From Pseudacidovorax sp. RU35E (lineage in GTDB: Bacteria; Pseudomonadota; Gammaproteobacteria; Burkholderiales; Burkholderiaceae_C): 64,000 bases of DNA. Of the stretch, positions 19,248 to 33,107 are shown piece by piece. The notes under the pieces are model-generated. The model was not told where the DNA came from, made no database searches, and saw only the letters and a program-made list of their open reading frames with translations. How positions within the stretch are numbered: the stretch's first letter is position 1; every line of letters begins with the position of its first letter. Made by a program: the position numbers and the translations under genes. The DNA lies in the NCBI RefSeq assembly GCF_900156165.1, contig NZ_FTMY01000017.1, positions 1 to 64,000 of the forward strand, given 5' to 3'.

Positions 19248-20096
19248 TCAGCGCCGCGGCGGATCGACGCCCAGCGTCGAGAGCGGAAGGCGCGAGACCT
19301 CGGCCAGCGCCTGTGCCAGTCCGCGCGCGGCGGCGTCCAGCAGGGCGTAACCTTGTGCGCGCGTCGCCGCCGCCGCGTTGCCGGCCGCTCCCTCCGGGTG
19401 GTAGTCCTGCATGGCCCAACCCAGCTTGGCACTGCGGCCGTTGCCCAGGATCGCGTAGTCGCGGGCCCGCTCGCGGGAGGTGGACGGAAAGTCCTTCACC
19501 GCGTAGTGCCGTACCTGCTGCGGCGCCAGCGCCAGCATCAGTGCTGTCTCGAATTCGCCGGCGTGTACGTCGAAGCGGTCTGGCACCAGCGGCTGGCCGG
19601 TGGTGGCGTCCGTCAACGGCAGGTTGAACCAGCTCAGGCTGTAGACGATCAGGTCGTGCGCCTCGCGCAGCTCGCGTGCGGCGATGTCCATTGCGCCGGT
19701 GTGGCCGCCGTGGGCGTTGAAGAGCACCAGCTTGCGCACGCCGGCCCGCGCGACGCCTGCGCCGATCTCCTTCCACAGGCGCAGCACCGTCTCCGACGAC
19801 AGGGTGAGCGTGCCGGCGAAGCGGGCATGTTCGGGGCTCAGGCCCACGGGCAGCGTGGGCAGGAAGAGCGCGGGCAGTTCGGACGGCAGCAGCGGCAGCG
19901 CGGCCTGCACGATGCCCTCGGCGATGACGGTGTCCACGCCCAGCGGCAGGTGCGGGCCATGCTGCTCGGTGGCACCCAACGGCAGCACCGCGACGGTGGT
20001 GGCCGGGTCCAGCGCGGCGAAGTCGCGGGTGCCGAGTTCGGCCCAGAAGCGGGGAAACGTCGGCGGCATGGGCGGCTTGGCGGGCGTGGCGGTCAT
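19248..20096 (-). CDS. creatininase family amidohydrolase
   Basis: A 282-residue metal-dependent amidohydrolase of the creatininase family. Metal-ligand blocks are ATEQHGPHLPLGVDT (Glu, His, Asp) and FNAHGGHTGAMD, followed by DVHAGEFETALML. Substrates in the family include creatinine, mycofactocin precursor and formamidopyrimidines, so the name gives the fold rather than the reaction. Its start overlaps the stop of the LysR gene by four bases (ATGA), an unusual arrangement in which regulator and enzyme share a transcript. Confidence 0.86.
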   Translation of the reverse strand: MTATPAKPPMPPTFPRFWAELGTRDFAALDPATTVAVLPLGATEQHGPHLPLGVDTVIAEGIVQAALPLLPSELPALFLPTLPVGLSPEHARFAGTLTLSSETVLRLWKEIGAGVARAGVRKLVLFNAHGGHTGAMDIAARELREAHDLIVYSLSWFNLPLTDATTGQPLVPDRFDVHAGEFETALMLALAPQQVRHYAVKDFPSTSRERARDYAILGNGRSAKLGWAMQDYHPEGAAGNAAAATRAQGYALLDAAARGLAQALAEVSRLPLSTLGVDPPRR

Positions 20097-21073
20097 CCGG
20101 CAATGTTAGGCCGGCCCGCCGCACTGCCTGCACCGGTGCTGCCTCCGGCGGTGGCGATGCCGGCCGGATCGTCGGCCAGCCAGTGCGCCAGCCAGTCGGC
20201 CAGGAAATCCACCAGCGCCCGCACTCGCGCTGGCACGAAGCGGTTGCTGGGCAGCAGGGCATGCAGCGGATAGGGCTCGGTGTCCCAGTCGGGCAGCAGG
20301 CGCACCAGGGCGCCGCCGTCCAGGTCGGCCCGCACGTCCAGGTAGGACTTGAAGGTGATGCCCACGCCGGCCACCGCCCATTCGCGCGCCAGCGAGGCAT
20401 CGTCGGCATGGCGGTCGCCGTCGATGCGCACCGCCACCCACTGGCCGCCCTGGCCGAAGCGCCATTCGCGCTGGCGGCGGCCACCGCGGTGGAAGCTCAG
20501 GCAGTTGTGCTGCGCCAGGTCCTGCGGCGTGCGGGGCATGCCGCGCCGCTGCAGGTAGGCAGGGGCGGCGCAGAGCACGGGTCGGGTCTGCGCCAACGGG
20601 CGCGCCACCAGCCGCGAGTCGGCCAGCGGGCCATAGCGCAGGGCCAGGTCCACCTCGTCGCGCATCACGTCCAGCGGCCGGTCGCCGACCGACAGCGCCA
20701 GCTGCACGCCGGGATGCCGGGCCAGGAACTCGTCGAAGGCGGGCAGCAGCACGCGGCGGGTGAGGTCCGAGGGCGCCGCCACCCGCAGCGTGCCGACCAG
20801 CTCGCCACGGCCGGCCGTCACCTGCGCCTCGGCCTCGGCCAGCAACTCGAAGGCGCGGCCGGCGTAGTCGAGCAGGGTCTGGCCCTCGGCGGTGAGCCGC
20901 AGCGCGCGTGTGGAGCGCTCGAACAGCCGCGCGCCCAGTTGCGCCTCCACCCGCTTGAGCGCCGCGCTCGCCGCGGCCGGCGTCAGGCCCAGCGTGCGGC
21001 CCGCCGCGCTCAGCGAGCCGCCGCGCGCCGCCTCCTGCACCAGCCTCAGGTCGGCCAGATTTTCAATTCCCAT
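20093..21073 (-). CDS. LysR family transcriptional regulator
   Basis: A 326-residue LysR-type regulator. The N-terminal helix-turn-helix region is RLVQEAARGGSLSAAGRTLG followed by LTPAAASAALKRVEAQLGARLFERSTR. A substrate-binding domain follows, with a C-terminal extension rich in alanine and glycine. It sits divergently to the alcohol dehydrogenase gene at 21163 and upstream of the creatininase gene on the same strand. A TTCAA-N7-TTGAA inverted repeat overlaps its start codon and may be an autoregulatory T-N11-A type site. Confidence 0.92.
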   Translation of the reverse strand: MGIENLADLRLVQEAARGGSLSAAGRTLGLTPAAASAALKRVEAQLGARLFERSTRALRLTAEGQTLLDYAGRAFELLAEAEAQVTAGRGELVGTLRVAAPSDLTRRVLLPAFDEFLARHPGVQLALSVGDRPLDVMRDEVDLALRYGPLADSRLVARPLAQTRPVLCAAPAYLQRRGMPRTPQDLAQHNCLSFHRGGRRQREWRFGQGGQWVAVRIDGDRHADDASLAREWAVAGVGITFKSYLDVRADLDGGALVRLLPDWDTEPYPLHALLPSNRFVPARVRALVDFLADWLAHWLADDPAGIATAGGSTGAGSAAGRPNIAG

Positions 21074-21078
21074 TTGAA
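21062..21078. promoter_or_regulatory. possible LysR box
   Basis: TTCAA and TTGAA, separated by seven bases, form an inverted repeat over the start codon of the LysR gene and 85 bases before the divergent dehydrogenase gene. The spacing fits the T-N11-A pattern of LysR-type regulators, but such short motifs occur by chance, so this is tentative. Confidence 0.35.
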
Positions 21079-21162
21079 GATGATGCCACCGGCGAGCAGC
21101 TTATCAATGCGGGGCGCGGAACCTAGAGTGGAGTCATCCCTCTTCCCTGCCTGGAGAACCCC

Positions 21163-22173
21163 ATGAAAGCCGTCGGCTACCGCCAGAACCTGCCCATCGA
21201 ACAACCGGAATCGCTGATCGACCTCGACCTTCCCGAGCCGCAGCCCGGCCCGCGCGACCTGCGCGTGCGGGTGGCTGCCATCTCGGTGAACCCCGTCGAC
21301 ACCAAGGTGCGCCGCAATGCCGCCCCCGAGGCCGGCCAGGCCCGCACGCTCGGTTGGGACGCCGTGGGCACCGTCGATGCCGTCGGCAGCGCCGTGACCG
21401 GCTTCGCCCCCGGCGACCGGGTGTACTACGCTGGCTCCATCGTGCGGCCGGGCGCCAACAGCGAGCTGCATCTGGTCGACGAGCGCATCGTCGCAAAGGC
21501 CCCGGCCACGCTGGGCGATGCGGAGGCCGCGGCCCTGCCGCTCACGGCCATCACGGCCTGGGAGCTGCTCTTCGACCGCCTCCAGGTGCCGCGCGGCAGC
21601 GGCGCCGGCCAGACGCTGCTGGTCACCGGGGGTGCCGGCGGCGTGGGCTCGATCCTGATCCAGCTCGCGCGGCAGCTGACACAGCTGCGGGTCGTGGCCA
21701 CCGCCTCGCGGCCCGAGACCCGCCAGTGGTGCCTGGACTTGGGCGCCCATGTCGTGGTCGACCACAGCCGGCCGCTCGCCGCCGAGCTGAAGGCCGCCGG
21801 CATCGAGGCCGTGGACCTCGTCGCCAGCCTCACGCAGACCGCGCAGCACTACCCGCAGCTGATCGAGGCGCTCAAGCCCCAGGGCCGCCTGGGCCTGATC
21901 GACGACATGCCGCAACTGGACGCGATGCCGCTGAAGACCAAGGCCATCTCTCTGCACTGGGAAATGATGTTCACCCGCTCGCGCTTCGAGACGCCCGACA
22001 TGGCCGAGCAAGGCGCGCTGCTGGCCGAGGTGGCCGCGCTGGTCGACGCCGGCCGCCTGCGCACCACGCTGGGCGAACACTACGGCCGCATCGACGCAGC
22101 CAACCTGCGCCGCGCCCATGCCTTCGTCGAAAGCGGCCGGGCGCGGGGCAAGGTGGTGCTGGAAGGCTTCTGA
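21163..22173 (+). CDS. zinc-type alcohol dehydrogenase-like/quinone oxidoreductase
   Basis: A 336-residue medium-chain dehydrogenase/reductase. The N-terminal GroES-like domain includes ISVNPVDTKVRRN and GWDAVGTVDAVGSAVTGFAPGDRVYYAG. The Rossmann domain has the nucleotide motif VTGGAGGVGSILIQLARQL. No catalytic zinc cysteine cluster is visible, so it is probably a zinc-free NADPH:quinone/enal reductase type despite the family name. It starts at ATG 21163, after a GGAG-like sequence, and is transcribed away from the LysR gene, a likely regulator. Confidence 0.88.
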   Translation: MKAVGYRQNLPIEQPESLIDLDLPEPQPGPRDLRVRVAAISVNPVDTKVRRNAAPEAGQARTLGWDAVGTVDAVGSAVTGFAPGDRVYYAGSIVRPGANSELHLVDERIVAKAPATLGDAEAAALPLTAITAWELLFDRLQVPRGSGAGQTLLVTGGAGGVGSILIQLARQLTQLRVVATASRPETRQWCLDLGAHVVVDHSRPLAAELKAAGIEAVDLVASLTQTAQHYPQLIEALKPQGRLGLIDDMPQLDAMPLKTKAISLHWEMMFTRSRFETPDMAEQGALLAEVAALVDAGRLRTTLGEHYGRIDAANLRRAHAFVESGRARGKVVLEGF

Positions 22174-22232
22174 GCCGCCGGCCCCGCACGCGGCGTGCGT
22201 GCCATGCCGGCGGGGCGCGACGCGTGGCTCGG

Positions 22233-22389
22233 AAGGTGTGAACGAGCCCGGCGTGGCCGAGCGGGCTGCGAAAACGTGGCCAATCAAGGCGCAAAGCGCA
22301 GCCATAGCTCGGGCTATGGCGAGCATTTGCAACGCGGAGTGGGCGTGTTTTGGCAGAACGAGCGGGCATGGCGGGCTCGTTCACACCTT
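22233..22389. repeat. closed palindromic intergenic element
   Basis: Eighteen-base arms AAGGTGTGAACGAGCCCG (22233-22250) and its exact reverse complement (22372-22389) enclose about 120 bases. Inside are a perfect 8-bp hairpin GCCATAGC-TCGG-GCTATGGC (22301-22320) and a GCGC-AAA-GCGC hairpin (22289-22299). It fills the gap between the 3' ends of two convergent genes. It may act as a bidirectional terminator or be a dispersed palindromic repeat. Confidence 0.8.
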
Positions 22390-22390
22390 C

Positions 22391-23266
22391 TCAGTCCTGC
22401 TGCTCGTAGTGCGCCTGCCGCGCCTCCATCTCCGCCCAGCCGATCACCCGCTTGAACTCGGCCATGGGCACCTGGCCGGCCGGCAGGCCATCCACCTCGC
22501 CGCTGCGGCGGGCGGCCAGCGTGGCCAGATTGGCCTGCAGCGCATGCACCGTGCTCATCAGCGTGACGATGGGATAGGTGGCGAAGGCCGCCACCGACTC
22601 CACCTGCTCGCGCGTGAGCTTCTCCATCCACAGGCCCTGCATCAGCTGCAGCGAAAGCCGGCGGCCCGACACCTCGCGCAGCTTCACCAGGTCCTCGTAG
22701 CCCTTGAAGGTGCGCGAGATCGGCTGGATCAGGTCGGCGCCCGCCTCGGCATAGCGCGCGGCGCGGTCCATGGCCTCGGCGGGGTCGAGCACATCGGTGC
22801 GCGCGACGATCAGGAAGTCCGGGTCCTGCCGCGCGTCGACCGCGGCGCGGATGCGCGCGACCGCATCCTTGACCGGCACCACCGGCATCACCGAGGCGGC
22901 GGCGGGGCAGCGCTTGGGGCTGATCTGGTCCTCGATGGAGATGGCGGCCACGCCCGCCTTCTCGAACTCGCGCACGGTGCGGGCCACGTTGATCACGTTG
23001 CCGTAGCCGGTGTCGGCGTCCGCGAAGATGGGCTTCTTCACAACGTTGGCGATGCGGTTGACCACCGCCACGTTCTCGGTGAGGGTGTAGACCTCCATGT
23101 CCGGCTGGCCCAGCAGCGAGGCCGAGATGCCGAAGCCGGTGGTGAAGATGCCGTCGAAGTCCGACTGGTCCACGAGCAGGGCCGACAGGGCGTCCTGCAC
23201 GCCGGCCATCCAGAAGGTGGGGCCGTCGGTGATGCGTTGGCGAAGGGTCTGGCGCAGAGTGGGCAT
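22391..23266 (-). CDS. isocitrate lyase/PEP mutase family lyase
   Basis: A 291-residue TIM-barrel enzyme of the isocitrate lyase/phosphoenolpyruvate mutase superfamily, the size of 2-methylisocitrate lyase, 2,3-dimethylmalate lyase and oxaloacetate decarboxylase. The Mg-binding DADTGYGN lies at residues 83-90, and EDQISPKRC holds the lid cysteine C120. The residue after it is proline, where KKCGH/KRCGH proteins have GH. VARTDVLD is also conserved. It is the last gene of an eight-gene operon with an aconitase-like pair and an importer. C-C cleavage of a hydroxy-dicarboxylate to pyruvate or glyoxylate plus an acid is inferred. Confidence 0.85.
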   Translation of the reverse strand: MPTLRQTLRQRITDGPTFWMAGVQDALSALLVDQSDFDGIFTTGFGISASLLGQPDMEVYTLTENVAVVNRIANVVKKPIFADADTGYGNVINVARTVREFEKAGVAAISIEDQISPKRCPAAASVMPVVPVKDAVARIRAAVDARQDPDFLIVARTDVLDPAEAMDRAARYAEAGADLIQPISRTFKGYEDLVKLREVSGRRLSLQLMQGLWMEKLTREQVESVAAFATYPIVTLMSTVHALQANLATLAARRSGEVDGLPAGQVPMAEFKRVIGWAEMEARQAHYEQQD

Positions 23267-23287
23267 GGTGGCTCCTTTCGCGGACGG

Positions 23288-24496
23288 TCAGCGCTTGACC
23301 GGGTCGATGTAGCCACCCAAGGGCGCGAACTTGTCGCCTTTCAGCTCCATCAGTGCCACGCCGGTCTGGCCGCGGCGCGAATAGGGGCCGGCGTTGAGCG
23401 GCTGGAAGGTGATCTTGGGGCCGATCTTCTGGTCGAAGTCCTTCAGGCCGTCCAGCGCCGCCACCACCTTGGCGCGCGAGGGCTCGTTGCCCGCGCGCTG
23501 CAGCGCCTCCACGGCGACGGCCGCGGCCGAGTAGCCCATCAGCGCATTCGACGATGGCGCCGACTTGGGATAGGTCTTGGTGTAGCGCGCGAAGAAGGAC
23601 TGGATCGCCGGGTTGTCGCCCTCGATGGCGTCGTAGTAGGAAGCCACGTACAGCTTGGACTGCGTCTTGCCCAGCAGCTCCACGAACTTGGGATCGTTCA
23701 GGCCGCCGGCACCGAACACGGTGGGCTTCCAGCCCAGCTTCTCAGCGCTGCGGAAGAACTGCACCGCCTCCTGGCCCAGCGCATAGACCACCACCACATC
23801 GGGCTCGGCCTGCTTCAGCTTGAAGACCTGCGAGGTGAGGTCAGTGGCGAAGCGCTCGAAGCTCTGCGCCTCGACCAGCTTCATGCCGTGCTTCTCCAGC
23901 TGCTTGACGGCGATGTCGTAGGCCGGTTTGCCCCAGCCGTCGTTCTGGTAGAGCATGGCCACCTTCTTGGCCTTGAGCGTGCCAACGGCATAGTCGATGT
24001 ACGCGGCCGTCTCGGTGGACTGCGGCGAGGGCAGCACATAGAGCAGCTCGCGCGGCGGCGTGCTGGTCAGGTCCGAGATGGACAGCGCGCCGATGGTCGG
24101 CACCTTCTTGGTCGAGCTGTATTCGTAGGCGCTCACGTTGGTGGCGTGGCCGATGTTGCCCACCATGGCGAGCACGTTGTCGCGCTCGATCAGCAGCTTG
24201 GCATTGGCCACCGACTTGGCGGGCTTGAGCTCGTCGTCGTAGGTGATCAGCTTGATCTTGCGGCCGTTGACGCCGCCCTTCTCGTTGACCATGTCGAAGT
24301 AGGTGCGCATGCCCTCGTCCACGGCCTTGCCCATGTAGGCCAGCGTGCCGGACAGCGGCTGCGAGGAGCCGAGCACGATCTCCTTCTCCAGCACGCCTTC
24401 GTCCTTGTTCTCGAAGGCGGCGGCCGGCAGCGCGGCGGCGGCCAGCGCACAGGCGGCCGCGGCGATCAGGGTGCGGCGGGAATGCAGCGTCATCAT
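23288..24496 (-). CDS. branched-chain-type ABC substrate-binding protein
   Basis: A 402-residue periplasmic binding protein of the LivJ/LivK type. It has a signal peptide (MTLHSRRTLIAAAACALAA) cleaved near PAAAFEN. The mature part reads IVLGSSQPLSGTLAYMGKAVDEGM and contains conserved blocks such as NEKGGVNGRKIKLITYDD. A strong AAGGAG precedes ATG 24496 by eight bases; an internal ATG at 24493 is an alternative. It should capture the substrate for the permeases LivH/LivM in this operon. Although such systems are called branched-chain amino-acid transporters, many carry aromatic acids, amides or dicarboxylates. Confidence 0.92.
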   Translation of the reverse strand: MMTLHSRRTLIAAAACALAAAALPAAAFENKDEGVLEKEIVLGSSQPLSGTLAYMGKAVDEGMRTYFDMVNEKGGVNGRKIKLITYDDELKPAKSVANAKLLIERDNVLAMVGNIGHATNVSAYEYSSTKKVPTIGALSISDLTSTPPRELLYVLPSPQSTETAAYIDYAVGTLKAKKVAMLYQNDGWGKPAYDIAVKQLEKHGMKLVEAQSFERFATDLTSQVFKLKQAEPDVVVVYALGQEAVQFFRSAEKLGWKPTVFGAGGLNDPKFVELLGKTQSKLYVASYYDAIEGDNPAIQSFFARYTKTYPKSAPSSNALMGYSAAAVAVEALQRAGNEPSRAKVVAALDGLKDFDQKIGPKITFQPLNAGPYSRRGQTGVALMELKGDKFAPLGGYIDPVKR

Positions 24497-24554
24497 GGGT
24501 ATGTCTCCTTGGGGTGGGTTTGTCGCGGAAGGAAGAAGCGCAAGGGCCGTGGCA

Positions 24555-25281
<727 letters not shown>

Positions 25282-25298
<17 letters not shown>

Positions 25299-26139
25299 TC
25301 TTGCCTCCTCCCAGGTAGGCCTCGATCACGGCCGGATGCGATTCGATCTCCCGCGGCGTGCCCTGCGCCAGGAAGGCGCCGTTGTGCATCACGGTAATGG
25401 TGTCGGAGATGGACATGACCAGCGGCATGCTGTGTTCGATGAGCAGCAGCGTGGCGCCGGTGCGTGCCTGCAGCGTGCGCAACGTGTCGCCCAGGGCGTC
25501 GATCTCGCGGTTGTTCATGCCGGCCGCGGGCTCGTCCAGCAGCATCAGCACGGGCTCCAGCGCCATGGCGCGGGCCAGTTCGACCAGCTTCTGCGTGCCG
25601 TAGGGCAGGTCGCGCACCAGCGTGTGGGCATGGGGCGCGAGGCGCAGCTCCTCCAGCAGAGCCTGCACGCGCTCGCGCTCGGCGCGCTCCTCGCGGCGCT
25701 GGCGCGGCAGGTTGAGCAGGGCCTCGGCCAGCGTGGCGCGCATGGCCTGCGAGCGGGCGATGAGCACGTTGTCGAACACCGTCAGCTCGGCGAAGAGCTC
25801 CAGGTTCTGGAAGGTGCGGGCGATGCCCAGGCGCGAGATCTGGTGCGCCTTCAGGCGCAGCAGGTCGTGCTCGCCCTGCGCCGTGCGCAGCAGCATGCGG
25901 CCCTGCTGCGGCGTGTAGAAGCGGCTGATGCAGTTGAGCATCGTGGTCTTGCCGGCACCGTTGGGGCCGATGAGCGCATGCACGGTGCCGGGCATGACGT
26001 CGAAGCCCACGTCCTGCACGGCCACGATGCCGCCGAAGCTCATGCGCACACCGGCCAGGGACAGCAGTGGTGCGGCGGCACCGGCCGGCCGCGCCGCGCC
26101 CCGAGCGGGCGTGGCCTGGGCGTCGATCGCGCGCATCAT
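25282..26139 (-). CDS. livG: ABC transporter ATP-binding protein (LivG type)
   Basis: A 285-residue ABC ATPase with Walker A GPNGAGKTTMLNCISRFY, the LivG-type long insert (FQNLELFAELTVFDNVLIAR) and Walker B VLMLLDEPAAGMNNREID. An N-terminal extension of roughly 25 alanine-rich residues precedes the domain; starting at the second methionine would remove only one residue. It overlaps livM by four bases, which suggests strict co-translation. Confidence 0.93.
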
Positions 26140-27113
26140 GTGCCCTCCTTGCCGGGCGCGTCGGCGCCGGGCAGGCGGCGCGTCTTGAACAGGCTGGCCA
26201 GCCCGTCGGGCAGGAACATCAGCGCCAGGATCATGGCCACGCCGTACAGCGCGCGCTGGAACTGGTCGAAGCCGAAGTAGGTGAGCAGCTGCGGTGCGCC
26301 GATGACGAAGATCGCCCCCAGCACCGAGCCCAGGATGGAGCCCAGGCCGCCCACGATCACCATCGACACGAAGCTGATCGACACCATGATGTTGAACAGC
26401 GACGGGTCGATGAAGCGCACCAGCGGCGCATAGAGCGCGCCCGACAGGCCCGTATAGAAGGCGCAGACGCCGAAGGCCACCAGCTTGAGGCCCGTGGTGT
26501 TGAGCCCCAGCGCGCGGGCCGCCGTCTCGCTGCCCTTGATGGCCAGGAAGCCGCGGCCGAAGCGGCTGCGCGCCAGGTTGCGCGCCAGCCAGAGGGCGGC
26601 GCCCAGCACGCAGGCGGCCAGCAGGTGGTAGGCGCGCTCGTCCAGCGCCAGCCCGAAGAGCGTGGGGCCGGGCGCGCCCATGCCGTTCTCGCCGCCGGTC
26701 AGGTCGCCGCCGGACTTGGCGATCTCCACCGAGATCATCACGAAGCCCAGCGTGGCGATGGCGAGGAACACCTCCTCCAGCCGCAGCACCGGCAGCGCCA
26801 GCACCAGGCCGACCACCGTGGCGATGGCCGCCGCGATGAGCATGGCCAGCAGCATCGGCACGCCGAACTGCTGCGTCAGGATGGCCGTGCCGTAGGCGCC
26901 GATGCCGAAGAACACCGCGCCCGCCATCGAGATGAGGTTGGTGTAGCCGGTGAGGGTGTTGGTGCCGAACGAGGCCAGCGTGTAGATCAGCACCAGCGTG
27001 GCGATGTAGAGCACGTAGCCGCCGGGCACCAGCGGTGCCAGCACCAGCAGGGCCACGAACAGGGCGGGAGCCAGCCAGGGGCGGCCGTCGAGCAGATGGG
27101 TCATGCGCGTCAT
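26136..27113 (-). CDS. livM: branched-chain-type ABC permease (LivM type)
   Basis: A 325-residue inner-membrane permease with about eight to ten hydrophobic helices. The LivM family block SLGFGTNT-like segment reads ASFGTNTLTGYTNLISMAGAVFFGIGAYG, here recognised by its GYTNLISMAGAVFFG core. The cytoplasmic coupling stretch includes RFGRGFLAIKGSETAARALG. It pairs with LivH to form the channel. It begins seven bases after livH. Confidence 0.93.
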   Translation of the reverse strand: MTRMTHLLDGRPWLAPALFVALLVLAPLVPGGYVLYIATLVLIYTLASFGTNTLTGYTNLISMAGAVFFGIGAYGTAILTQQFGVPMLLAMLIAAAIATVVGLVLALPVLRLEEVFLAIATLGFVMISVEIAKSGGDLTGGENGMGAPGPTLFGLALDERAYHLLAACVLGAALWLARNLARSRFGRGFLAIKGSETAARALGLNTTGLKLVAFGVCAFYTGLSGALYAPLVRFIDPSLFNIMVSISFVSMVIVGGLGSILGSVLGAIFVIGAPQLLTYFGFDQFQRALYGVAMILALMFLPDGLASLFKTRRLPGADAPGKEGT

Positions 27114-27120
27114 CGCTTAC

Positions 27121-27984
27121 TCAGACCTTCTTGACCTGCCGGCGCGCCAGCAGCCCGTGCGGCCGCAGCACCAGGATGGCCAGCATCACGATGAAGGGCA
27201 CGGCGTCCTTCCAGGCCGAGGACACATAGGCGCCGGTGAGGTTGCTGCTCACGCCGATGATCACGCCGCCCAGCAGCGCGCCCGGCATGCTGCCGATGCC
27301 GCCCAGCACCGCCGCCGCGAAGGCGAAGTGCAGGGCGTGCTGCATCATCGAGAAGTGCACGAAGGTCAGCGGCGCGATCAGCAGCCCCGCCGCAGCCGCG
27401 ATGACGTGCGACAGCGCCCAGGCCAGCGCATAGATGCGCTTGATGGGGATGCCCATCAAGCGCGCCGCCACCGGGTTCTCCATGGTGGCCTGCATGGCGA
27501 TGCCCAGCCGCGTGAAGCGGAAGAAGGCGAACAGCGCCGCGGCCAGCGTGGCGCACACGCCCACGATGCCCAGGTCGATGCCCGACACCACCGCATCGCC
27601 CACCTGCAGCGGCGTGCTCGGGAAGATGCTCGGCAGTTCCTGGGTGTCCTTGCCCCAGATCCAGATGGCCATGTCGCCGAACAGCAGGAACAGCCCCAGC
27701 GTGCAGATGGCCGAGGACAGCAGCGCCTTGCCGATGAAGCGCCGGATGATGAAGCGCTCGATCGCCATGCCCAGCGCCGCGCCGAACAGCAGCGTGAGCG
27801 GCACCACCGCCCACATCGGCAGACCCAGCCGCACCAGCGTGCAGGCAGTGAAGGCCGACAGCATGGCGGCCTCGCCATGCGCGAAGTTGAGGATGCCCGT
27901 GGCCTTGAACACCATCACGATGCCCAGGGCGATGAGCCCGTAGATGGCGCCCAGGGCGACGCCGCTGACGATCATCTGCAGCAT
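27121..27984 (-). CDS. livH: branched-chain-type ABC permease (LivH type)
   Basis: A 287-residue inner-membrane permease with about eight helices. The N-terminal SGVALGAIYGLIALGIVMVFK and the ILNFAHGEAAML block are characteristic of LivH. The coupling region reads TRLGIAMQATMENPVAARLMG. It starts 11 bases downstream of the LeuD-like gene, tying the importer to the aconitase-like enzyme in one transcript. Confidence 0.93.
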   Translation of the reverse strand: MLQMIVSGVALGAIYGLIALGIVMVFKATGILNFAHGEAAMLSAFTACTLVRLGLPMWAVVPLTLLFGAALGMAIERFIIRRFIGKALLSSAICTLGLFLLFGDMAIWIWGKDTQELPSIFPSTPLQVGDAVVSGIDLGIVGVCATLAAALFAFFRFTRLGIAMQATMENPVAARLMGIPIKRIYALAWALSHVIAAAAGLLIAPLTFVHFSMMQHALHFAFAAAVLGGIGSMPGALLGGVIIGVSSNLTGAYVSSAWKDAVPFIVMLAILVLRPHGLLARRQVKKV

Positions 27985-27995
27985 GCGCGACGCCC

Positions 27996-28565
27996 TCAGC
28001 CTGCCGTGGCGCCGGTGGTGGCGGCGTCGGCGGCCGCCTTCTGCGCCGCCTCGCGCGCGAGCCGTGCCTTCAGGTAGGGCACGAAGCCGCCGGCCGCCAG
28101 CGTGCCCCGCTCGACCGAGGACAGCGGCTCGAAGGGCAGCTCGGCACCGGTGTCGAGGTTGAGCACGCGGCCGAGCGCCCAGTCCACGCGCAGCCGCTGC
28201 CAGCGCGCGGTGGCGGCGCGGATGCCCGGGCAGGTGACGAGCGGAAAGCCCATGCTGATCTCGCCGCGGAAGAAGCCGGGCGAGAAGGATTCGGCGATCA
28301 CACCCTCCACGCCCAGGTGGCGCATCGCGCGCATGGCCGGGTAGTGCGGATGGCCGTAGCCGAAGTTGTGGCCGCCCACCAGCAGGTCGCCCTTCTGGAC
28401 GCTGGCGGCGAACTGCGGGTCATAGCTGGTCATGGTGACCCCGGCCAGCTCATGGATGTCGGTGATCTTGATGTTCTTGATGCCCACGATGAGGTCGATG
28501 TCGTAGTCGTCCTCGGTGAAGATCCAGGCCGCGCGGCCTTCGAGGTTGGGCAACTGGGCGCTCAT
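27996..28565 (-). CDS. LeuD/DmdB-like aconitase-family small subunit
   Basis: A 189-residue small (swivelling-domain) subunit of the isopropylmalate isomerase/dimethylmalate dehydratase type. AAWIFTEDDYDIDLIVG and VIAESFSPGFFRGEISMGFPLVTCPG follow the family pattern. The loop that normally reads GCGSSREHA and holds substrate carboxylates is GYGHPHYPA here (residues 69-77), so the usual serines and arginine are gone. Start ATG 28565 overlaps the large-subunit stop by four bases (ATGA). It should form a complex with the large subunit; a substrate other than isopropylmalate is likely. Leucine synthesis is unlikely in this context. Confidence 0.84.
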   Translation of the reverse strand: MSAQLPNLEGRAAWIFTEDDYDIDLIVGIKNIKITDIHELAGVTMTSYDPQFAASVQKGDLLVGGHNFGYGHPHYPAMRAMRHLGVEGVIAESFSPGFFRGEISMGFPLVTCPGIRAATARWQRLRVDWALGRVLNLDTGAELPFEPLSSVERGTLAAGGFVPYLKARLAREAAQKAAADAATTGATAG

Positions 28566-29848
28566 GCCGCGCTCCCTTCGGCCGCGGCGGCCGCCAGATA
28601 GGGCCGCGGGTCGGCGATGCGCCCCTCCAGGGCCGAGGCGGCGACCACCGCCGCATTGCACAGGAAGATCTCGGTATCGGCACTGCCCATGCGGCCGGGC
28701 GTGTTGAGGGTGCCCGTGGACACCGCGCGCTGGCCGTCGGCCATGGTGGCGATGCGGCCGTAGCAGTAGTCGCAGCTCGACGAGCTGATGAAGGCCCCGG
28801 CATCCACCAGGGTGGCGATCAGGCCCTCGCGCGCGGCCTGCGACATGATGGCCTGCGAGGTGGGCACCACATGCAGCTGGAAGCCCGGCTTGATGCGCTT
28901 GCCGCGCAGCACGTCGGCGGCGGCGCGCAGGTCCTCCAGCCGGCCGCTGGCGCAGGAGCCCAGGTAGCCGGTGTGCACCTCCAGGCCCGCGTACTCGGCC
29001 AGGTCGCGGGTGTTGGCGGGGCTGGGCGGTGCCACGACGATGGGCTCCAGCGCCGAGATGTCGATCTGCACCACGCGCTCGTACACCGCATCCGCATCGG
29101 GATACACCGGGTCGAGCGCGATCTTGGCCCGCTCGCGGGTGTACGCCAGCGTCTTGGCGTCCGGCGCGATCAGCATGGTGGTGGCGCCCAGGAACATGGC
29201 CTGGCCGCAGATGGTCTGGCGGCCCTCGATGCTCATGGCTTCGATCACCGGGCCGCTGAGCTCCACCACCTTGAAGCGGCAGGAGGACGGGCCCATCACC
29301 CGCACCATGTGGTGGAACACGTCGCGCGCCATCACGCCCGGCTGCAGCGTGCCGGTGAGTTCGACCTTGACGGTGGCGGGCACGGTGAGCGCCATCTTCT
29401 CGCTCACGAAGGTCTCGAGCACGCTCTTGCGCGCGCCGAAGGCCAGGGTGCCGAAGGCGCCCAGCTGGCTCACATGGCCGTCGAAATGCACGGCGAAGGC
29501 GCCCGGAGTGGCATAGCCCAGCTCGGCCGACACCTGGTGGCCGATGCCCTCGCGCTCGTGCACCGGCACGCCCTGCTCGGCGCCCCAGGCGCGGGTGACG
29601 CGGTGCAGTTCTTCTTCCTTGGGCGCGGCGGCCGGGACCATGTGGTCGATGAAGAGCACGAAGCGCTCGGGGCTCGTGACCTTCTCGACGCCGAATTCCT
29701 CGCGGGCCTCCTTGAAGAACACGTCGGTGTAGCCGGGGAAGTCGTAGGCGATCACGAAATCCGGCCGGGCCAGGATCTCGTCACCGGCCTTCACGGTGGG
29801 CAGCCCGGCCACGCGGGCCAGGATCTTCTCGGTCATCGTCAGGGGCAT
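28562..29848 (-). CDS. LeuC/DmdA-like aconitase-family large subunit
   Basis: A 428-residue [4Fe-4S] dehydratase large subunit. Cluster cysteines C299 (LGSCASGR), C359 and C362 (SSSCDYCYG) keep the 60- and 3-residue spacing of LeuC. Two substrate motifs differ: the usual TDSHT is FDGHV at 122-126, and the usual STSNRNF is STGTLNT near 377-383. The following PGRMGS is kept. Compared with LeuC of about 465 residues it is short. ATG 29848 has AAGGAG ten bases upstream; M5 is an alternative. It heads an operon with the small subunit, ABC importer and lyase, opposite an IclR regulator. It probably hydrates or dehydrates a substituted dicarboxylate. Confidence 0.85.
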   Translation of the reverse strand: MPLTMTEKILARVAGLPTVKAGDEILARPDFVIAYDFPGYTDVFFKEAREEFGVEKVTSPERFVLFIDHMVPAAAPKEEELHRVTRAWGAEQGVPVHEREGIGHQVSAELGYATPGAFAVHFDGHVSQLGAFGTLAFGARKSVLETFVSEKMALTVPATVKVELTGTLQPGVMARDVFHHMVRVMGPSSCRFKVVELSGPVIEAMSIEGRQTICGQAMFLGATTMLIAPDAKTLAYTRERAKIALDPVYPDADAVYERVVQIDISALEPIVVAPPSPANTRDLAEYAGLEVHTGYLGSCASGRLEDLRAAADVLRGKRIKPGFQLHVVPTSQAIMSQAAREGLIATLVDAGAFISSSSCDYCYGRIATMADGQRAVSTGTLNTPGRMGSADTEIFLCNAAVVAASALEGRIADPRPYLAAAAAEGSAA

Positions 29849-29866
29849 GGCGCCTCGTCTCCTTAT

Positions 29867-29877
29867 CCACAATGTGG
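29867..29877. promoter_or_regulatory. IclR-type operator, copy 1
   Basis: CCACAATGTGG is a palindrome with an unpaired centre (CCACA-A-TGTGG). It lies two bases upstream of the Shine-Dalgarno of the LeuC-like gene. The same 11 bases recur at 29953-29963. The two lie in the divergent promoter region of the iclR-type gene and its neighbour operon, where binding would block the operon's leader. Confidence 0.65.
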
Positions 29878-29952
29878 CGCCCTGTTCGGCGCCCATGGAT
29901 GGATTACAGAGCGCCCACCCGGCTCACCCTGATGCGGTTAACCCTAGATTGC

Positions 29953-29963
29953 CCACAATGTGG
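29953..29963. promoter_or_regulatory. IclR-type operator, copy 2
   Basis: A second CCACAATGTGG, 86 bases centre to centre from the first. It overlaps an alternative GTG start (29960) of the regulator and lies 20 bases before the preferred ATG 29984. The TCCACA-x-TGTGG core extends outward in mirror orientation to the other copy. Two such sites suit a tetrameric IclR protein that loops DNA and represses itself. Confidence 0.65.
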
Positions 29964-29983
29964 ATGCAAACTACAAAGCCCAC

Positions 29984-30829
29984 ATGAGTGAAGAGAACGA
30001 GGAAGTCGCCGAAGGCACAGACGGACCGCCACAAGGTGGACAGCAGCGCACCGGCACGCAGAGCATCGAACGGGTGGTGAACATGCTCCGCGTTGTGGCG
30101 TCCCGGGGCCGCAATGGCATGCGCATCGGCGAGGTGGCGGCCACCAGCGGACTGCCGCAGAGCACCTGCTTTCGCATGCTCGCGCGGTTGGAACTGGAGG
30201 GCCTGGTGGACCGCGATGCACGCACCCGCAAGTACTACCTGGGGCCGCTGCTGCACGAGCTGGGCCTGCTGGCGCGTCCCCGCTACCGGCTCAGCGAGAT
30301 GTGCGACGCGGCCCTGCACCGGCTGGCCGAGACCACGCAGGACACGCTCTACCTGAGCGAGCGCAGCGGCCTGGAGGCGGTGTGCACCAACCGCGCGCTG
30401 GGCGACTACCCGATCAAGGCATTGCCGCTGGACATCGGCATCCGCCGGCCCCTGGGCGTGGGCGCGGGCGGGCTGGCCATGCTGTGCGCCATGCCGGCGG
30501 CCGAGGCGGAGTCGATCATCCAGGCCAACGGACACCGCTATGAGAAGTACGCCTCCTTCTCGGCCGACTTCCTGCGCGAGGTCGTCGCCCAGGGGCGGCA
30601 TCAGGGCTACTCGTTTCTGGACAGCGCGGTGACGCCCGGCACGGCGGCCATCGGCGTGGCATTTCCGCCGGACAACCCGGTCGCGGCCATCAGCGTGGCC
30701 GCGATCTCGGGCCGGCTGACGGCCGAGCGGCGCGAGGAGATCGCGCGCGAGGTGCAGCGGCAGGTGCGGCTGATCTGCGCCGACATGACGGCGCATGCGC
30801 TGCTGCCGCCGGAGGCGGGCGCCAGCTAG
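29984..30829 (+). CDS. IclR family transcriptional regulator
   Basis: A 281-residue IclR-type regulator. The helix-turn-helix is MRIGEVAATSGLPQSTCFRMLARLELEGLV, here recognised by GLPQSTCFRMLARL. The C-terminal effector domain includes RRPLGVGAGGLAMLCAMP and a late TAAIGVAFPP stretch. ATG 29984 is favoured because the upstream GTG 29960 lies inside a palindromic site. It is divergent from the aconitase-like/ABC/lyase operon and probably senses its substrate or a breakdown product. Confidence 0.92.
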   Translation: MSEENEEVAEGTDGPPQGGQQRTGTQSIERVVNMLRVVASRGRNGMRIGEVAATSGLPQSTCFRMLARLELEGLVDRDARTRKYYLGPLLHELGLLARPRYRLSEMCDAALHRLAETTQDTLYLSERSGLEAVCTNRALGDYPIKALPLDIGIRRPLGVGAGGLAMLCAMPAAEAESIIQANGHRYEKYASFSADFLREVVAQGRHQGYSFLDSAVTPGTAAIGVAFPPDNPVAAISVAAISGRLTAERREEIAREVQRQVRLICADMTAHALLPPEAGAS

Positions 30830-30842
30830 GGCTCGAGAGACG

Positions 30843-32171
30843 TCAACGCGCGCGAGACACGCGCCAAACCGCGCCGCCCACGTCGTCGGCCACCAGAAGC
30901 GCGCCCGACTTGTCCAGCGCCACGCCCACCGGCCGGCCCAGCGCCTTGCCGTCGGCCGAGAGGAAGCCCGTGAGGAACTCGCGCGGCGCCCCGCTGGGCT
31001 TACCGCCGATGAAGGGCACGAAGCTCACGCGGTAGCCCGAGGGCGGGTTGCGGTTCCAGGAGCCGTGCTCGCCGATGAAGGCGCCGTTGGCGAATTCCTC
31101 CGGCATGCCGCGCGCGCTGGAGAAGGCCAGGCCCAGGGGCGCCACGTGATTGCCCAGCGCGTAGTCGGGGCGGATGGCGGTGGCCACCTTCTCGGGTTGC
31201 TGCGGCTGCACGCGGGTGTCGACCATGCCGCCCCAGTAGCTCCAGGGCCAGCCGTAGAAGCCGCCTTCGCGCACCGAGGTCAGGTAGTCGGGCACCAGGT
31301 CGCTGCCGATCTCGTCGCGCTCGTTGACCACCGTCCACAGCACATTGGTGTCGGGCTCCCAGGCCATGCCGTTGGGATTGCGCAGGCCGCTGGCCATCAT
31401 GCGCTTGGCGCCGGTCGCGCGGTCCACCTCCCAGATGGCGGCGCGGCCTTCCTCGTGCTGCATGCCGTAGTCGGCGATGTTGCTGTTGCTGCCGACGGTG
31501 ACGTAGAGCTTGCTGCCGTCGCGGCTGGCGATGACGTTCTTGGTCCAGTGGTGGTTGAAGCCGGCGGGCAGGTCCGTCACCTTCACGGCCGCGCCACTCG
31601 CCTGGGTCTGGCCTTCGGTGTAGGGCAGCTTGACCAGCGCATCGGCATTGGCCACGAACAGCTCGTTGCCCACCAGCGCCATGCCGTAGGGCGAGGTCAG
31701 GCCGCTGGCGAAGACGGTGCGCGTCTCGGCCACGCCGTCGCCGTCGGCATCGCGCAGCAGGGTGATGCGGTCGGCACTGGGCACGCCGGAGCCGGCGCGC
31801 TTCATGACCAGGCCGGTGATCTTTTCCTTGATCTTGTCGAAGAAGCCGCCGGGCTTGGGATCGGCATTGCGGGGCCGGTCGCTCTCGGCCACCAGCACGT
31901 CGCCATTGGGCAGCACGTACACCCAGCGCGGATGGTCCAGGCCGCGCGACAGGGCCGTCACCTTGAAGCCGGGCAGCGGCGTGGGCGCGGCGGTGTCCTG
32001 CCAGCCGGTGGCGGGCGCCACCTTCATGGTGGGCAGCAGCGTCTTGTTGGGCGCGGGCAGTTGCGGGTTGGGGCCGGTGCCGGCCTCGAATGGCAGCTTG
32101 GCGGTGTCGCCGCAGCCGGCGAGGGCCAGCACCGCGGCGGCGGCAAGGGTGAGGGTGGCGGTGCGCATCAT
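30843..32171 (-). CDS. PQQ-dependent sugar (sorbosone-type) dehydrogenase lipoprotein
   Basis: A 442-residue exported protein. The N-terminus [20 protein letters not shown] ends in a lipobox cysteine. The body is a beta-propeller of the glucose/sorbosone dehydrogenase family, with [40 protein letters not shown] and [14 protein letters not shown]-like blade repeats (seen as [13 protein letters not shown]). The late [19 protein letters not shown] is typical. These enzymes oxidise sugars or aldehydes in the periplasm and often need PQQ. No PQQ biosynthesis genes lie here. It converges on iclR with a 13-base gap. Confidence 0.85.
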
Positions 32172-32288
32172 GGGCGCGGATGATCGGGGCGGACCGAAGC
32201 GGCGCATGTAGTCGCAGACCGCGAGCCGCCGGAAGCCGAAGGCTGCGCCCGCGCACGATCCGAGAGAGCCCAGGGCTACCATCGCAGG

Positions 32289-33107
32289 ATGACCGCCGAC
32301 GCCCCTGCGGCTGCGCCCTCGCCGGCCGCACCCGCCATCCCGCCCACGACCACCGACGACCTGTTCCGCGCAGACGCCTATCTGCGCGAACGCCCCGCCC
32401 GCGTGCTGCGCGTGGAGGCCGCAACCGGCACCGTGGTGCTGGACCGCACCGTGTTCTATCCGCTGGGCGGCGGCCAGGCCGGCGACAGCGGCGTGCTGCG
32501 GCTGGCCGATGGCGGCGAGCTGACCATCGCCGACACGCGCAAGGGCAAGGACGAGGAAGGCCAACCCACGGCCGAGATCTGGCACCTGGCTGCGCCGGAG
32601 CAGGAAGCCGTGCTGGCCCGTCTGACACCGGGCGACACCGTCACCGCCGCCATCGACTGGGAGCGCCGCCACCGCATGATGCGGCTGCACACCGCCAGCC
32701 ACCTGCTGTGCCACCTCGTGGCGCAGCCGGTCAATGGCTGTTCCATCACGCCCGAGGCGGTGCGCGTGGACTTCCACATGAGCGAGGCGCTGGACGCCGC
32801 GGCCCTGGCCGAGGGCCTGACTGCCCTGGTGGCCCAGGCCCTGCCGGTGACCGTGGGCCGCGTCACCGATGCCGAGCTGGACGCCAACCCCGGCCTGGTC
32901 AAGAGCATGAGCGTGCAGCCGCCGCGCGGCAGCGGCACGGTGCGCACCATCCGCGTCGGCAGCACCGAGGCGCCCATCGACCTGCAGCCCTGCGGCGGCA
33001 CTCACGTGGCCAACATCGCCGAGATCGGCGCGCTGCGCGTGGCCAAAGTCGAGAAGAAGGGCGCGCAGGCCCGGCGCGTGGTGCTGGCCTTCGCCGAGGC
33101 AACCTGA
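32289..33107 (+). CDS. alanyl-tRNA editing protein (AlaX type)
   Basis: A 272-residue stand-alone editing-domain protein related to the second half of alanyl-tRNA synthetase. Zinc ligands are HTASHLL and, further on, [13 protein letters not shown]. The N-terminal [14 protein letters not shown] and [13 protein letters not shown] are also typical. It hydrolyses misacylated Ser- or Gly-tRNA(Ala). An alanine/proline-rich N-terminus of about 25 residues precedes the domain. Confidence 0.9.

What the first reader, a model, noticed from the sequence alone, without database searches (positions are those of the whole stretch)
22391..30829. Aconitase-like dehydratase, ABC importer and ICL/PEP-mutase lyase in one IclR-controlled operon
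Eight minus-strand genes, in order leuC-like, leuD-like, livH, livM, livG, livF, binding protein, lyase, are joined by overlaps of 4-17 bases or gaps of 7-58 bases. A divergent IclR gene completes the locus. Established knowledge: 2,3-dimethylmalate dehydratase (DmdA/DmdB, LeuCD-like) followed by 2,3-dimethylmalate lyase (ICL/PEP mutase family) exists in anaerobic nicotinate breakdown. Here the same two enzyme types are combined with a dedicated importer. I infer a complete uptake-to-cleavage pathway for an unidentified substituted dicarboxylate, which I do not recognise as a described system.
Basis: partly seen in the sequence, partly recalled or inferred. Interest (0 to 1): 0.8.

Follow-up and report, generated by a model that had tools for sequence, protein, structure and literature searches.

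The report
Acid-cleaving operon with remodelled aconitase
A soil bacterium carries a self-contained gene set that appears to import an unidentified organic acid, convert it with an aconitase relative whose usual catalytic residues have been swapped, and split it into smaller acids; the enzyme pair recurs in several groups of bacteria with different transporters, but its substrate is unknown.

Summary
The operon is real and lies where stated, in a Pseudacidovorax relative. LeuC-like, LeuD-like and ICL/PEP-mutase-type lyase genes form a conserved core: LeuD lies beside LeuC in 80 of 80 fetched loci and a lyase follows in 70 of 80. The core also occurs in Bacillota and on a Rhodococcus plasmid. 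The transporter is interchangeable (LivHMGF, TctC, TRAP, MFS).

The likeness to DmdAB is too simple. This LeuCD pair is a separate clade (100/99) that keeps the three cluster cysteines but has replaced 8 of 17 mapped aconitase active-site positions, including the Ser642 base: GSSR has become GHPH in 87 of 87 rows. The lyase keeps its keto-acid end and catalytic Cys, while the other end differs from PrpB. The binding protein lacks the LivJ/LivK amino-acid contacts in 20 of 20 rows, and a canonical leuCDB stands elsewhere. Paired CCACAnTGTGG palindromes are a likely IclR operator.

Best reading: uptake, Fe-S (de)hydration or isomerisation, then cleavage to pyruvate or glyoxylate plus a second fragment. 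Substrate unknown; nothing was assayed.

The parts
28562..29848 (-). LeuC-like large subunit, remodelled clade (ORF extends to 29896; likely start ATG at 29848)
   Evidence: searches (NF001614 367 bits, cut-off 385, so below it; 4nqy 248.6 bits), residues, start
27996..28565 (-). LeuD-like small subunit with GHPH in place of GSSR
   Evidence: (TIGR02087 98.8 bits, cut-off 108.95, so below it)
27121..27984 (-). LivH-type permease
26136..27113 (-). LivM-type permease
25282..26139 (-). LivG-type ATPase
24555..25298 (-). LivF-type ATPase
23288..24496 (-). Periplasmic binding protein (Peripla_BP_6) without LivJ/LivK amino-acid contacts
22391..23266 (-). ICL/PEP-mutase superfamily lyase, KRCP type
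29960..30829 (+). IclR-family regulator (ATG at 29984 is an alternative start)
29867..29877 (.). Palindrome CCACAATGTGG, likely IclR operator copy 1
29953..29963 (.). Palindrome CCACAATGTGG, likely IclR operator copy 2, 86 bases from copy 1

Best explanation
A catabolic unit for one organic acid. The ABC importer brings the acid in (inferred). The LeuCD-like heterodimer, a [4Fe-4S] hydro-lyase or isomerase with a conserved His-Pro-His stretch where other aconitases have the serine base and its neighbours, converts it into the lyase substrate (inferred). The Mg-dependent lyase then breaks a C-C bond, releasing an alpha-keto acid, pyruvate or glyoxylate, and a second fragment protonated by the catalytic Cys (inferred from retained residues). 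The divergent IclR protein controls this operon through paired CCACAnTGTGG sites (inferred from conservation). Shown by sequence: conserved gene association, residue replacements, conserved palindromes, exchange of transporter type. Not shown: substrate, direction of the LeuCD step, any activity, Fe-S content, IclR binding.
For: Core of LeuC, LeuD and lyase in 70 of 80 loci; co-occurrence 12 of 12 in 200 family genomes; transporters for organic acids (TctC, TRAP) replace the ABC set; cluster cysteines kept and active site uniformly changed; lyase metal, keto-acid and Cys residues kept and PrpB-like fold model; binding protein without amino-acid contacts; palindromes in 50 of 66 loci with an IclR relative, 0 of 23 without, 29 of 1600 random segments; acyl-CoA ligase directly after the lyase in Caballeronia.
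Against: No lyase was found in 10 of 80 loci; 3 of these have under 2500 bases left downstream, but 7 do not (six alphaproteobacterial loci and L085). Six loci pair the LeuCD with a different lyase without the catalytic Cys. One genome has a related KRCP lyase with no LeuCD nearby. The palindromes were not found in 16 of 66 loci with an IclR relative. Loss of the serine base could also mean loss of hydro-lyase activity.
Confidence: 0.7

Rival explanations
1. One reading: an ordinary LeuCD-type dehydratase acting on an alkyl- or methyl-substituted maleate/malate, followed by a dimethylmalate-lyase-type cleavage to pyruvate or glyoxylate plus a short acid.
For: Gene types and order; retained lyase Cys and keto-acid residues; model matches 2,3-dimethylmalate lyase 3fa3 at TM 0.81-0.82, behind PrpB at 0.84-0.85; acid-type transporters in other loci; an acyl-CoA ligase that could take up the short acid in Caballeronia.
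Against: Ser642, S643, R644, E262, N258, N446, R447 and S166 equivalents replaced in essentially every row; PrpB residues G124, H125, F186, E188, N210 replaced. Lyase-LeuC pairs with the ordinary KRCGH motif exist elsewhere in the same genome and fit this reading better.
Confidence: 0.3
2. A hydroxy- or sugar-acid route: LeuCD dehydrates a polyhydroxy or lactone-derived monocarboxylate to a 2-keto-3-deoxy acid, and the lyase acts as a pyruvate-releasing aldolase.
For: Paraburkholderia oxyphila L085 pairs the LeuCD with a hydrolase close to 2,4-didehydro-3-deoxy-L-rhamnonate hydrolase (408.6 bits, below the cut-off of 500), an SDR (PRK07577, 332.6 bits, cut-off 310) and an MFS transporter, without a lyase. 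L067, L073, L097, L098 and L099 add an MBL hydrolase near lactonases and organophosphate hydrolases and an FAD oxidoreductase near glycolate oxidase and vanillyl-alcohol oxidase. The residues lost include ones that bind extra carboxylates in aconitase (roles recalled).
Against: Only one locus has the rhamnonate-type hydrolase; most loci (36 of 80) have just LeuCD, lyase and TctC; LeuD has a basic residue at the specificity loop in 87 of 87 rows, which suggests a second anionic group.
Confidence: 0.2
3. Branched-chain amino acid metabolism: LeuCD for leucine synthesis beside a leucine importer.
For: Gene names only.
Against: Canonical leuC-leuD-leuB elsewhere in the genome (LeuC 773 bits, LeuB 507 bits); binding protein lacks S79, T102, Y150, Y202 and E226 of LivJ/LivK in 20 of 20 rows; accessory distribution, 12 of 200 family genomes.
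Confidence: 0.02

Closest known systems
Isopropylmalate/citramalate isomerase LeuCD (M. jannaschii, PDB 4nqy and 3vba)
   Same: Best solved sequence matches over the whole length of both subunits; three cluster cysteines, D100, H101, H147, D165, H167, R452 kept.
   Different: S166, N258, E262, N446, R447 and the GSSRE stretch replaced; YLVY loop replaced by N-[IM]-[KR]-x; scores under the NCBIfam cut-offs.
2-Methylisocitrate lyase PrpB (E. coli) and 2,3-dimethylmalate lyase (3fa3)
   Same: Fold; D58, D85, D87, E115, K121, R122, C123, R158 kept against PrpB.
   Different: G124, H125, F186, E188, N210 changed; 158.8 bits against the prpB cut-off of 354.4. Residue comparison was made with PrpB only.
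2,3-Dimethylmalate dehydratase DmdAB plus lyase of anaerobic nicotinate breakdown (recalled)
   Same: Idea of a LeuCD-type enzyme followed by an ICL/PEP-mutase-type lyase.
   Different: Here with importer and IclR, in aerobes, with changed active sites; DmdAB sequences not compared.
Aconitase X (cis-3-hydroxyproline and mevalonate 5-phosphate dehydratases; passages of PMC8184944 and PMC5144071)
   Same: Precedent for aconitase relatives with altered active sites and new substrates.
   Different: AtAcnX keeps a serine equivalent to Ser642, this clade has His; PaLhpI keeps one cluster-cysteine equivalent, this clade all three.
LIV-type branched-chain amino acid importer (E. coli LivJ/K-HMGF)
   Same: Subunit families.
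   Different: Ligand contacts of LivJ/LivK absent in the binding protein.

Membership tests
LeuCD / isopropylmalate isomerase | Three [4Fe-4S] cysteines (C358, C421, C424 of aconitase) | tested here: met
   84 of 84 rows
LeuCD / isopropylmalate isomerase | Serine base Ser642 in the GSSRE stretch of the small subunit | tested here: not met
   His in 87 of 87 rows, GHPH; role of Ser642 from PMC8184944
LeuCD / isopropylmalate isomerase | N258, E262, N446, R447, S166 equivalents | tested here: not met
   Replaced in 84 of 84 (S166: 83, one gap); numbering recalled
LeuCD / isopropylmalate isomerase | Score above NCBIfam cut-offs | tested here: not met
   LeuC 367.1 vs 385; LeuD 98.8 vs 108.95
LeuCD / isopropylmalate isomerase | Isomerisation of 2- to 3-isopropylmalate | not testable with these tools
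   Needs an assay
DmdAB / dimethylmalate lyase pathway | Sequence membership with E. barkeri DmdA, DmdB, Dml | not tested
   Sequences not on hand
ICL/PEP-mutase superfamily | PF13714 fold with metal and keto-acid residues | tested here: met
   139.4 bits vs 31.5; D58, D85, D87 in 69 of 70 (one gap), E115 and R158 in 70 of 70; fold
2-Methylisocitrate lyase PrpB | NCBIfam cut-off and KRCGH motif | tested here: not met
   158.8 vs 354.4 bits; KRCP in 69 of 70
Branched-chain amino acid (LIV) importer | LivHMGF-type subunits | tested here: met
   PF02653 and PF00005; NCBIfam Liv models are the best hits but all below cut-off
Branched-chain amino acid (LIV) importer | LivJ/LivK ligand contacts S79, T102, Y150, Y202, E226 | tested here: not met
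   Absent in 20 of 20 rows; contact list recalled
Aconitase X | Serine homologous to Ser642 | tested here: not met
   His in 87 of 87; serine in AtAcnX from PMC8184944
IclR regulators | HTH_IclR and IclR_C domains | tested here: met
   38.7 bits vs 22 and 50.9 vs 24; best NCBIfam model BhcR only 87.2 vs 350

The most novel reading that the evidence does not exclude
A further functional lineage of the aconitase superfamily that works without the Ser642 base and without much of the canonical active site, using a conserved His-Pro-His stretch, and that has co-evolved with a re-tailored ICL-type lyase into a widespread, repeatedly re-plumbed route for a soil organic acid whose breakdown has not been described.
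Probability: 0.5. Interest if true: 0.75.

Novelty: new variant of a known kind. Interest (0 to 1): 0.58.

Why it matters
[quoted passage not shown] A clade found in Pseudomonadota, Bacillota and a Rhodococcus plasmid that has replaced 8 of the 17 positions mapped here, yet keeps the cluster cysteines and a partner lyase, is a good candidate for a new reaction. Importer, two enzymes and a likely operator make it directly testable in harmless soil bacteria. It would also correct the name '3-isopropylmalate dehydratase' that the LeuD-like genes carry in four annotated records.

Tried and rejected
Leucine synthesis or uptake: rejected. Maleate hydratase of gentisate breakdown: considered because L085 pairs the LeuCD with a FAA hydrolase; that hydrolase fits the rhamnonate type better, maleate hydratase sequences were not compared, so it stays open but weak. 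Other regulon members through the operator: the two other exact sites in the genome lie inside a reading frame (C13) and in what looks by eye like a terminator hairpin before a peroxiredoxin-like gene (C14), so they say nothing about the product. Alphaproteobacterial loci L077-L081 and L084, without a lyase: Pfam of selected neighbours in L077, L078 and L080 gave no clear link. Promoter and terminator scan: nothing above shuffles. Search across the phylum: 4 of 398 genomes, own included. Structure of the LeuC subunit: not obtained. Literature (PMC open-licence papers only): six searches for the gene combination, its enzymes or possible substrates listed no title or abstract start that describes such a system; searches found no paper. 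Four more concerned maleate hydratase, aconitase X, lyase relatives and the aconitase superfamily. Only passages of PMC8184944, PMC5144071 and PMC7609661 were seen.
Full report
What is there. The operon at 22391-30829 is as described: LeuC-like, LeuD-like, LivH, LivM, LivG, LivF, binding protein and lyase on the minus strand, with a divergent IclR gene; families agree. The nearest records are Pseudacidovorax, 98-99% for LeuC in four records. LeuC probably starts at the ATG at 29848; LeuD overlaps it by 4 bases.

Conserved association. One scan of a collection of 84,980 species genomes returned 80 loci (86 relatives confirmed, 80 kept). LeuD lies beside LeuC in 80 of 80. By arrangement: LeuCD-ABC-lyase 17; LeuCD-lyase-TctC 36; LeuCD-lyase with another context 11; LeuCD with a second lyase type 6; no lyase found 10, of which 3 (L050, L058, L092) have under 2500 bases left downstream. 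Other transporters near the core are TRAP DctP/DctQ in betaproteobacteria and DctP/DctM in Neobacillus, MFS in a Cupriavidus MAG and in Rhodococcus, and other LivHMGF sets. The Rhodococcus opacus plasmid reads: IclR-like gene (by eye, divergent), lyase, LeuC, LeuD, MFS. In 200 genomes of the family, own included, LeuC occurs in 12 (E <= 1e-120) and the lyase in 13 (E <= 1e-50); the 12 LeuC genomes all have both on one contig. In the thirteenth, G555, a KRCP lyase (44%) stands beside a TctC-like gene and, by eye, an IclR gene; tblastn finds no LeuC or LeuD in the 16 kb around it.

Remodelled aconitase. Positions were mapped on M. jannaschii LeuC and named by pig aconitase numbers (recalled, except Ser642 and the cysteines, which PMC8184944 gives). 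In 81 near rows and 3 Bacillota rows: C358, C421, C424 and R452 are kept in 84 of 84; D100, H101, H147, D165 and H167 in 83 of 84 (one gap); N258 is G, E262 is F, N446 is T and R447 is L in 84 of 84; S166 is G or P in 83 of 84 (one gap). Ten comparison rows (own paralogues, some of them two pieces of one gene, and two plasmid loci) are mostly canonical; L103 is an exception. In LeuD, G-S-S-R-E becomes G-H-P-H-[YFK] in 87 of 87 rows and YLVY becomes N-[IM]-[KR]-x in 87 of 87. So 9 of 17 mapped positions are kept and 8 replaced; the remaining active-site residues of aconitase were not mapped. A tree of 43 LeuC rows parts the 35 remodelled rows from the 8 others with 100/99 support, with long branches flagged. 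The loci with the second lyase type fall in one clade (100/98) together with L085.

Lyase. Of 70 rows, the window type keeps D58, D85 and D87 (69, one gap) and E115, K121, R122, C123 and R158 (70) of PrpB. G124 is P in 69, H125 is A in 63, F186 is I in 67, E188 is R or K in 65 and N210 is Q in 65. A two-residue insertion next to positions 186-188 makes those columns less sure. The AlphaFold model (mean pLDDT 80) matches PrpB best (TM 0.84-0.85 for the top entries) and 2,3-dimethylmalate lyase 3fa3 at 0.81-0.82. The second type lacks the Cys.

Importer. Against E. coli LivJ and LivK, 20 of 20 orthologues above 60% identity lack S79, T102, Y150, Y202 and E226 (contact list recalled; 5 weaker or duplicate rows dropped). 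It is therefore unlikely to bind ordinary alpha-amino acids. Its ligand is unknown; the best solved match, 3lop, is called only 'Substrate binding periplasmic protein'.

Regulation. CCACAATGTGG occurs twice between LeuC and IclR, 86 bases apart. Upstream of LeuC, with at most one mismatch, it is found in 50 of 66 loci that hold any IclR relative (36 with two or more copies) and in 0 of 23 that hold none. Random 350-base segments of the 80 loci have it in 29 of 1600. The own genome has four exact places, two of them here; a reversed-pattern control gave 0. The other two lie in a reading frame and in a terminator-like hairpin. I infer a local regulator of this operon.

Wider context. Caballeronia (L067), L073, two Azospirillum plasmids (L097, L098) and Variovorax SRS16 (L099) add an MBL hydrolase near lactonases and organophosphate hydrolases and an FAD oxidoreductase near glycolate oxidase and vanillyl-alcohol oxidase. 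L067, L073, L097 and L098 also have an alpha/beta hydrolase. L067 has an acyl-CoA ligase after the lyase. Three Pseudomonas loci (L086, L087, L090) and Paraburkholderia piptadeniae (L083) have a class III CoA-transferase and an acyl-CoA dehydrogenase within 9.5 kb. These may feed or drain the route; none identifies the substrate.

Own genome. A canonical leuC-leuD-leuB lies on C8. C20 and C9 each have a KRCGH lyase directly before a LeuC of the 470-residue type. C17 has a LivHMGF set followed by a LeuCD with ordinary GSSRE, and a lyase about 6 kb on. Such pairings recur, then, and the window operon is the remodelled version.

Verdict. A real, conserved, probably catabolic unit for an organic acid. 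The novelty rests on a residue pattern, which is a sequence result; the chemistry is inference.

Noticed in passing
L106 (G000 C20:150500-160500) and L107 (G000 C9:266500-276500): Two further lyase-LeuC pairs in the same genome, with ordinary KRCGH lyases and LeuC of the 470-residue type, next to TctC-like genes; L107 also has a PrpF/4-oxalomesaconate-tautomerase-like gene.
   Followed up: partly
L105 (G000 C17:163000-180500): A third cluster: binding-protein-like gene, LivHMGF, LeuC and LeuD with canonical GSSREQ, and a lyase about 6 kb further on.
   Followed up: partly
L103 8022-10020 (Roseomonas marmotae plasmid): Another LeuCD-like pair with a differently altered active site (EGN in place of DSH, GHHNH in place of GSSRE) beside a TctC gene.
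   Followed up: no
L085 3680-9823 (Paraburkholderia oxyphila): The remodelled LeuCD next to an SDR, a hydrolase close to 2,4-didehydro-3-deoxy-L-rhamnonate hydrolase and an MFS transporter, without a lyase.
   Followed up: partly
L086 10770-11666, also L076, L083, L087, L089, L090: A second ICL/PEP-mutase lyase type (ADAEGGFF, GGKHT, no catalytic Cys) paired with the remodelled LeuCD.
   Followed up: partly
L116 6763-12062 (G555) and window 19248-33107: By eye, the G555 locus shares creatininase-like and alanyl-tRNA-editing-like neighbours with the window, but holds only a TctC-like gene, a KRCP lyase and an IclR-like gene there, without LeuCD.
   Followed up: partly
L077-L081, L084 (alphaproteobacterial MAGs): Remodelled LeuCD without a lyase within reach; a carboxyltransferase-domain gene lies close by in L077.
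   Followed up: partly
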